From Bullifex porci (GTDB taxonomy: Bacteria > Spirochaetota > Spirochaetia > Sphaerochaetales > Sphaerochaetaceae): a stretch of 64,000 nt of DNA. Shown one piece after another: positions 21,531-22,919 of this stretch. The DNA lies in assembly GCF_009695635.1 (NCBI RefSeq), contig NZ_VUNN01000003.1:62001-126000 (forward strand). Direction: 5' to 3'. The translations under genes and the position numbers were made by a program. How positions within the stretch are numbered: the stretch's first letter is position 1; each line of letters starts with the position of its first letter. The notes under the pieces are model-generated. The model did no database searches. It saw only the letters and a list, made by a program, of their open reading frames with translations, and had not been told where the DNA came from.

Positions 21531-21561
21531 AAAATGCGGGATTTCGGTCCCGCATTTTTTT
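21531..21561 (+). terminator. Intrinsic terminator
   Basis: An 11-bp stem (21531-21541 with 21548-21558, loop TTTCGG) ending in T residues. The IS element begins right after its T-tract. Confidence 0.9.
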
Positions 21562-21569
21562 ACAAATTA

Positions 21570-21615
21570 ACCGCCGAGAAAACTCACGCGCCTTGGCCGT
21601 GAGATGAAAGGCGGT
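21570..21615 (+). repeat. Left-end hairpin of the IS element
   Basis: ACCGCC (21570-21575) pairs with GGCGGT (21610-21615), enclosing a second stem CTCACG/CGTGAG (21583-21588 with 21598-21603). Subterminal imperfect hairpins of this kind are what TnpA recognises in IS200/IS605 elements. Confidence 0.7.
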
Positions 21616-21636
21616 AATGCGTAATGCCATAAAATG

Positions 21637-21645
21637 TGCTATAAT
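21637..21645 (+). promoter_or_regulatory. Extended -10 promoter of tnpB (leaderless)
   Basis: TGC-TATAAT forms an extended -10 (TATAAT at 21640-21645). Six bases later is the ATG at 21652, with no Shine-Dalgarno sequence, so transcription should start at or next to the start codon. Confidence 0.6.
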
Positions 21646-21651
21646 GATGTC

Positions 21652-22785
21652 ATGCGGACACTGACAGTAAAACTGTACAATAGCGATGACTTCGGATACC
21701 TTAGTGATATGATAAATATCGCCGGGATCATATACAACACGGCCCTGACAATCATACAGGACCACTATACCGAAACAGGGAAGCTTTTGGATAAATATGA
21801 ACTCCAGAAACAGCTCCGTGGTCTTCGCAACGCGGATGAAAACCACCACTGGCGTTATGTGGGAAGTCAGGCGGTACAGGAGATAACCGACAGGATATAC
21901 AGGGCGTACCGGCTGTTTTTCACTAACAGGGAAAAGGGAGTCAAATGTTCGCCACCCCGTCGTCGCAAGGTCAAAAAGTACAAAAGCGTCACCTACAAAC
22001 AGGCGGGATACAGATTTATTACTGGCGGACGTATCAGCATAAACGGACACATCTACAGATACTGGGACTCCTATGACGGACTCCTGGAACGGATCAAAAT
22101 CAAGACCGTAACGGTAAAGCGCAACATACTCGGAGAGTTCTTCGTCTACGTCACCACCGACAGCCCCGCCACCATGATTGAAACCAGGGACGGGCGCGGT
22201 GAGGTCGGCATGGACTTCGGACTCAAGATGTTCCTTTCGCTGTCTGACGGCAGTGTGATCAGATCCCCGGAGTTTTTCAGACAAGGCGTTGCAGGCATCC
22301 GCAAGGCTAGCCGTGCCCTGAGCCGTAAGGTGCTGGGGAGCAACGGATACGAGCGTGCACTGAAGGCACTGTACCGCAGGCACCAGGACATCGCCAACAA
22401 GAGAAGGGACTGGTTCTGGAAGCTAAGCCACGAACTCTGTTCAAGGTACGGCGTCATAGCCATAGAAGACCTTAATATCAAGGGTATGGCGAGGCTCTGG
22501 GGACGCAAGGTACACGACTATGCGTTTTCGGAGTTTGTGGAAATCCTGGAGTGGTGTGCCCGAAAGTACGGGACCAGGGTCATCAGGATTGGACGGTACT
22601 ACCCGTCGTCCCAAACCTGCTCCGCATGCGGACATGTGTGGCAAGGTACCAAGGACTTCAGTGTCCGTGAGTGGACCTGCCCAGAATGTGGGGTGTATCA
22701 CGACAGGGACATGAATGCTGCGGTGAACATACTCGCTGAGGCAAAGCGTATCATGAATCAAATGGAACAGGCGAAGGACGCCTAG
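21652..22785 (+). CDS. tnpB: TnpB RNA-guided nuclease (IS200/IS605 OrfB)
   Basis: A 377-residue TnpB, the ancestor type of Cas12. The N-terminal half is the helical/WED-like region. The split RuvC nuclease has Asp188 (GMDFGL), Glu272 (IEDLNIKGM) and Asp353 (DRDMNAAVNI), so all catalytic residues are intact. A zinc ribbon is formed by Cys323, 326, 343 and 346. TnpB cuts DNA at a TAM next to sequences matching the element's right-end RNA, which favours retention of the element. I prefer the ATG at 21652 (MRTLTVKLYN) over an ATG 18 bases earlier, since the -10 box lies between. Base composition marks it as recently acquired. Confidence 0.92.
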   Translation: MRTLTVKLYNSDDFGYLSDMINIAGIIYNTALTIIQDHYTETGKLLDKYELQKQLRGLRNADENHHWRYVGSQAVQEITDRIYRAYRLFFTNREKGVKCSPPRRRKVKKYKSVTYKQAGYRFITGGRISINGHIYRYWDSYDGLLERIKIKTVTVKRNILGEFFVYVTTDSPATMIETRDGRGEVGMDFGLKMFLSLSDGSVIRSPEFFRQGVAGIRKASRALSRKVLGSNGYERALKALYRRHQDIANKRRDWFWKLSHELCSRYGVIAIEDLNIKGMARLWGRKVHDYAFSEFVEILEWCARKYGTRVIRIGRYYPSSQTCSACGHVWQGTKDFSVREWTCPECGVYHDRDMNAAVNILAEAKRIMNQMEQAKDA

Positions 22786-22919
22786 ACCATAAGGCGAGGC
22801 CGGACGGGTCTCGCGGGCCAGAGACGGTGTAAGACGTCCTTCGGGGTGCAGCCGTCGTTACCATGGCCAGATTCCCATGGGCTTGTCCGTGGGAGTACGT
22901 CAACCTTTCTGTAAAAACG
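22786..22919 (+). ncRNA. Predicted omega (re)RNA scaffold and guide of TnpB
   Basis: Non-coding 118 bases between the tnpB stop and the right end are rich in stems: GACGG/CCGTC encloses a CC-TTCG-GG tetraloop, and CCCATGG (22874-22880) pairs with CCGTGGG (22887-22893). In this family the scaffold RNA overlaps the 3' end of tnpB and continues into flanking DNA, which is the guide; here the guide would be the 16 bases from 22904. The 5' end of the RNA may lie inside tnpB. Confidence 0.6.
22874..22893 (+). repeat. Right-end hairpin of the IS element
   Basis: CCCATGG and CCGTGGG form a 7-bp stem (one T-G pair) with loop GCTTGT, ten bases before the TCAA end. Confidence 0.7.

What the first reader, a model, noticed from the sequence alone, without database searches (positions are those of the whole stretch)
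21564..22919. Intact lone TnpB with a readable guide and empty-site prediction
The element has TTAC at the left junction, TCAA at the right end, hairpins at both ends and an intact RuvC triad (D188, E272, D353), but no tnpA. The predicted guide starts at 22904 (CCTTTCTGTAAAAACG). Joining the flanks predicts that the uninterrupted site has TTAC directly followed by this guide sequence, which is exactly what TnpB would cut (TAM plus target) to restore the element. Base composition differs strongly from the host, so arrival was recent.
Basis: partly seen in the sequence, partly recalled or inferred. Interest (0 to 1): 0.6.

Follow-up and report, generated by a model that had tools for sequence, protein, structure and literature searches.

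The report
Multicopy TnpB-only IS605-type jumping element
This is one of at least fifteen copies of a small jumping gene that has lost its own transposase but keeps the RNA-guided cutting enzyme TnpB; a sister genome confirms the predicted empty site, and several other copies sit next to unexpected deletions that appear to run between two target motifs.

Summary
Window 21564-22903 is a complete IS200/IS605-type element carrying only tnpB (383 or 377 aa, RuvC D/E/D intact), preceded by TTAC and ending in TCAA, with a guide from 22904. It is not lone. The same genome holds at least 15 insertion loci (14 of 15 left ends TTAC, one TGAC; all 16 right ends TCAA), about 5% diverged and under purifying selection (omega about 0.32), mutating from GC to AT. 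A congener carries a complete tnpA+tnpB relative with the same TTAC/TCAA ends, so these copies are a tnpA-less (IS1341-like) derivative that probably moves in trans. The GC contrast fits import from a GC-richer congener, not a very recent arrival. A sister species has the empty site for the window's copy, with TTAC in place. The omega-RNA fold is supported by covariation. Unexpected: of nine resolved loci, five are clean and four have lost 97, 119, about 120 and about 210 bp exactly at the element edge. At two of these, relatives carry TTAC at both ends of the missing segment. This suggests TTAC-to-TTAC deletion tied to transposition; the mechanism is inferred. The kind is known; the deletions are the lead worth testing.

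The parts
21531..21559 (+). Intrinsic terminator of the upstream gene; the element sits at the end of its T run
   Evidence: Sequence, scan (listed there on the - strand); conserved in the G010 empty site
21560..21563 (+). TTAC: target tetranucleotide / presumed TAM, in the flank
   Evidence: 14 of 15 left ends in this genome; TTAC present in the empty G010 site
21564..22903 (+). Whole element (1340 bp, GC 52.8% in a 36% GC host)
   Evidence: Boundaries set by the other copies in different flanks; GC
21571..21614 (+). Left-end structure: outer stem CCGCC/GGCGG around inner stem CTCACG/CGTGAG
   Evidence: DNA fold; compensatory changes in L039 and G005
21579..21582 (+). Position of the left guide (AAAG in IS608 and in 7 of 9 full copies; AAAA in this copy)
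   Evidence: IS608 left guide from PMC5934647
21634..22785 (+). tnpB, 383 aa (377 aa from the ATG at 21652); RuvC D at 22213-22215, E at 22465-22467, D at 22708-22710; zinc finger CSAC...CPEC
   Evidence: Pfam OrfB_IS605 and Cas12f1-like_TNB; NCBIfam guided_TnpB; aligned to TnpB structures 8h1j and 8bf8
22785..22903 (+). omega-RNA scaffold, four helices: 22794-22801/22807-22814, 22823-22828/22851-22856, 22835-22839/22844-22848, 22873-22880/22887-22894
   Evidence: 95.0% cells paired, 13 pairs with changes on both sides, 0/500 shuffles
22870..22894 (+). Right-end hairpin with the putative right guide GATT (22870-22873; GAAT in IS608 and in G005)
22900..22903 (+). TCAA, right cleavage site
   Evidence: All 16 right ends in this genome
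22904..22919 (+). Guide: first 16 bases of the right flank (CCTTTCTGTAAAAACG)
   Evidence: Follows TCAA; no perfect TTAC+guide target elsewhere in the genome

Best explanation
A non-autonomous, TnpB-only (IS1341-like) element of the IS200/IS605 family with IS608-type TTAC/TCAA sites. Shown: boundaries, intact and selected TnpB, covarying omega-RNA, many insertions in this genome, a tnpA-bearing relative in the genus, and an empty site with TTAC. Inferred from the known biology of the family: a Y1 transposase acting in trans moves it 3' of TTAC as single-stranded DNA, and TnpB loaded with the omega-RNA cuts TTAC plus the guide at any restored empty site, so that repair from an element-bearing copy puts it back. 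The element probably came from a GC-richer congener. At several loci the flank was lost between two TTACs, most simply by the transposase joining the element to a second TTAC nearby.
For: Copies and ends. Family. omega-RNA covariation. Intact ORF in 8 of 9 full copies; omega 0.32, with 73 silent, 41 replacement and 1 stop change observed against 39, 70 and 6 expected. Autonomous relative with tnpA, tnpB, TTAC and TCAA. Empty sites. Clean insertions: the window's copy, an AraC-like gene (L010+L017), a response-regulator-like gene (L013+L016), a pentapeptide-repeat gene (L004), and L008 (one base short). Family mechanism: PMC8612924, PMC5934647; mobilisation in trans proposed for tnpA-degraded IS605 copies in PMC7290912.
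Against: No cognate tnpA found in this genome (a 96.7% complete draft), so current mobility is unproven. This copy's left guide is AAAA, not AAAG, and the right guide is GATT, not GAAT. omega-RNA expression and cleavage are untested. Purifying selection could partly predate the spread.
Confidence: 0.9

Rival explanations
1. A domesticated TnpB used by the host (for example as a repressor or in defence) rather than a mobile element.
For: No tnpA in the element; purifying selection on the ORF.
Against: At least 15 loci with clean ends and different guides, catalytic residues intact, the site empty in a sister species, several copies broken by other ISs.
Confidence: 0.04
2. A dead relic whose copies spread long ago and now only decay; TnpB activity plays no part today.
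For: No cognate tnpA found here; many copies interrupted or truncated; left guide changed in this copy.
Against: 8 of 9 full copies keep the ORF at about 5% divergence and replacement changes are depleted.
Confidence: 0.2
3. The flanking deletions are ordinary decay of already broken genes or slippage between short repeats, unrelated to transposase or TnpB.
For: TTAC-to-TTAC loss also fits 4-5 base microhomology; disrupted genes are free to decay; full-length copies were picked for intact ends.
Against: Four of nine resolved loci lose sequence exactly at the element edge with the left tetranucleotide kept. At two of them relatives carry TTAC at both ends of the missing segment (L002 in G010 and G003; L012+L015 in two G010 homologues). 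Random decay should also eat into the ends.
Confidence: 0.35

Closest known systems
IS608 (ISHp608, Helicobacter pylori)
   Same: TTAC left cleavage/target site, TCAA right cleavage site, subterminal hairpins, AAAG left guide in most copies, insertion 3' of TTAC (PMC5934647)
   Different: No tnpA; right guide GATT; this copy's left guide AAAA; the base after TTAC is not mainly C; adjacent deletions at some loci
ISDra2 TnpB (Deinococcus radiodurans)
   Same: TnpB family and RuvC triad by sequence; guide taken from the right flank; target site doubles as TAM (PMC8612924)
   Different: TAM TTGAT, not TTAC; autonomous element; cleavage shown by experiment there, not here
IS1341 group (TnpB-only elements)
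   Same: Only tnpB between IS605-type ends (PMC9956272)
   Different: At least 15 loci here against averages of about 1-3 per genome in the six species surveyed there; a tnpA-bearing relative is found in the same genus
tnpA-degraded IS605 copies of Halanaerobium hydrogeniformans
   Same: Multicopy elements with intact ends thought to move by TnpA in trans; one copy broken by IS21 (PMC7290912)
   Different: One intact tnpA remains in that genome; none of the cognate type was found here

Membership tests
IS200/IS605 | TnpB with OrfB/RuvC triad and zinc finger | tested here: met
IS200/IS605 | Subterminal hairpins at both ends | tested here: met
IS200/IS605 | Insertion 3' of a fixed short motif without target duplication | tested here: met
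   TTAC at 14 of 15 left ends; clean empty sites at five loci; four other loci carry deletions
IS200/IS605 | Y1 (HUH) transposase in the element or acting in trans | tested here: inconclusive
   None in the element; three other TnpA types in the genome; cognate-type tnpA in G005
IS200/IS605 | omega-RNA at the right end running into the flank | tested here: met
   Conserved structure only; expression not testable here
IS608-like subgroup | CL TTAC, CR TCAA, GL AAAG, GR GAAT | tested here: inconclusive
   CL and CR met; GL met in 7 of 9 full copies but not in this one; GR reads GATT
IS1341 group | tnpB only, no tnpA remnant | tested here: met
   No room for a tnpA remnant between the left-end structure (to 21614) and the tnpB start (21634 or 21652); no PF01797 match in the window's contig
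TnpB RNA-guided nuclease | TAM-dependent cleavage of DNA matching the guide | not testable with these tools
   Needs a biochemical assay

The most novel reading that the evidence does not exclude
Transposition of this element often deletes the DNA between two TTAC motifs (97 to about 210 bases) beside the element: the transposase joins an element end to a second TTAC on the same single strand. If so, an IS200/IS605-type element is not always scar-free but also makes short motif-bounded deletions, and TnpB may then help to fix the deleted allele.
Probability: 0.4. Interest if true: 0.6.

Novelty: new member of a known kind. Interest (0 to 1): 0.4.

Why it matters
It gives a natural set of about 15 guide-bearing TnpB copies in one genome with checkable empty sites, evidence that tnpB is kept under selection without its own tnpA (a question the IS1341 literature leaves open, PMC9956272), and a testable claim that this type of transposition can leave motif-bounded deletions.

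Tried and rejected
Rfam: no omega-RNA family match, only weak chance hits. Viral contigs: no relative found. Replication-strand bias from local GC skew of 22 sites: no bias, about half positive. An intact TTAC+guide target elsewhere in the genome: none; only 2-mismatch matches to a 16-base pattern, 8 against 4 for the reversed control. L039, labelled Clostridiales: its right flank is identical to that of the G010 copy, so it is probably the same spirochaete and mis-binned; not used as evidence of wide spread. L006 (groES side / GNAT-like gene lacking its start) looked like a further deletion, but the GNAT-like gene has no close orthologue in relatives, so it was left unresolved. L003 and L007 stayed unresolved. 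The SUG1361 locus shows 863 extra bases in the window's genome but without TTAC at the edges; not counted. Paper searches found no report of TTAC-bounded deletions for this family, but the library lacks many subscription papers.

Full report
What is there. Window 21564-22903 is a 1340-bp element, preceded by TTAC (21560-21563) and ending in TCAA (22900-22903). It encodes one protein, TnpB, 383 aa from 21634 or 377 aa from 21652; the second start matches the G005 homologue. Pfam, NCBIfam and PDB comparisons place it in TnpB, and the RuvC residues D, E and D and the zinc finger are present. GC is 52.8% in a host of about 36%.

It is not alone. BLAST of the element against its own genome gives 23 matches. 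I reconstruct 15 loci with a left end: nine full-length, three with a left and a right half on different contigs that I paired through the interrupted host gene, and three with a left end only. Up to four more loci have a right end only. Left ends read TTAC in 14 of 15 and TGAC in one (L012); all 16 right ends read TCAA; the flanks all differ. This fixes the boundaries without relying on one copy.

Age and selection. Full copies are 94-96% identical to one another in a star-like pattern, and 8 of 9 keep the ORF open. Among 115 changes seen in a single copy, 73 are silent, 41 replacement and 1 a stop; the same mutation spectrum without selection predicts 39, 70 and 6, so omega is about 0.32. 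88 changes go from G/C to A/T and 17 the other way. The copies have therefore been mutating in an AT-rich host while TnpB stayed under selection. Sampled stretches of congeners G003, G005, G001 and G007 have GC of 47-51%, those of G000 and G010 34-36%, so import from a GC-richer congener explains the contrast better than very recent arrival. Part of the divergence may predate the spread.

Where tnpA went. The own genome has TnpA of three other kinds, with different ends where these can be read. In congener G005, contig C30, a complete relative has TTAC, a matching left-end structure, tnpA (132 aa, Y1_Tnp), tnpB (59% identical) and the same right end GTGGGAGTACGTCAA. The closest own-genome TnpA to it is only about 46% identical. 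The window's element is thus a tnpA-less derivative, IS1341-like, most likely moved in trans as proposed for Halanaerobium (PMC7290912).

Ends and omega-RNA. The left end folds as an outer stem around an inner hairpin, with compensatory changes in L039 and G005. The left guide is AAAG, as in IS608 (PMC5934647), in 7 of 9 full copies, but AAAA in the window's copy and in L009; the right guide reads GATT instead of GAAT. This copy may therefore be excised poorly; that is a prediction. An alignment of 23 right ends, including G005 and cyanobacterial relatives, supports four helices: 95.0% of cells paired, 13 pairs changed on both sides, none of 500 shuffles as good, and slid controls far lower.

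Empty sites. For the window's copy, G010 contig C84 aligns across the junction with no element: own GCATTTTTTTAC|CCTTTCTG, G010 GCATTTTTTTTAC|TCCTTTTC. TTAC is therefore older than the insertion here; the guide bases themselves have diverged. Clean closure also holds for an AraC-like gene (L010+L017), a response-regulator-like gene (L013+L016, TAAC in G010), a pentapeptide-repeat gene whose repeat runs through the junction (L004), and L008, one base short. For a G003 copy (L036), the empty site in the window's genome also shows TTAC directly before the flank. Gene names here are my reading of the translations.

Deletions. Four loci do not close up simply. L002 lacks 119 bp that G010 has and about 125 that G003 has; both relatives show TTAC at each end of that segment. 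L012+L015, in a gene whose product resembles an FMN-binding protein, lacks 97 bp; two G010 homologues (contigs C157 and C286) show TTAC at each end. L005 lacks about 119-120 bp, read as 40 residues in frame. L009 lacks about 70 residues (about 210 bp) of an RND-type transporter whose C-terminal part is present in relatives such as G006 and G004; here, as at L005, the relatives are too diverged to show the TTACs. Both flanks come from the same gene or neighbouring genes, so chimeric assembly is unlikely. A left flank that keeps its tetranucleotide, with sequence lost exactly at the element edge, points to a motif-directed event. I read this as the transposase joining an element end to a second TTAC nearby. 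Slippage between the short repeats is the main rival, and the sample is small.

How it works. Shown: anatomy, copy number, selection, RNA structure, empty sites, deletions. Inferred from the family (PMC8612924; PMC11870625): insertion 3' of TTAC as single-stranded DNA, TnpB cutting TTAC plus guide at restored sites, and repair that puts the element back. No perfect TTAC+guide target exists elsewhere in the genome, as expected for a self-targeting guide.

Verdict. The element is a new member of a known kind. The TTAC-bounded deletions are the part a specialist might not expect.

Noticed in passing
L010, L011, L014-L020, L049 (element positions about 1071-1293): Many copies are cut by other ISs or truncated, and about nine of 13 breakpoints fall in the last 270 bp of the element (end of tnpB and omega-RNA); the adjoining sequences are of several kinds, some IS21-like in appearance.
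   Followed up: partly
L018 (G000:C16:8172-8334) and L020 (G000:C24:156-277): Truncated copies keep only the omega-RNA scaffold, right end and a guide; they could supply guides to TnpB made by other copies.
   Followed up: no
L012 (G000:C22, left end): The only left end with TGAC instead of TTAC; two G010 homologues have TTAC at that place.
   Followed up: partly
Window 21531-21563, L002, L006, L007 left flanks: Four of nine full copies sit just behind what look like intrinsic terminators; could be preference or simply harmless AT-rich sites.
   Followed up: no
L039 (JAQXNU010000139.1): A contig labelled Clostridiales carries the element at the same right flank as G010; probably a mis-binned spirochaete contig.
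   Followed up: partly
G000:C27:1-2200 (L157): A different IS605-type unit with a small DNA-binding ORF, tnpA and the start of a TnpB-like ORF, and a left-end hairpin that resembles that of the window's element.
   Followed up: no
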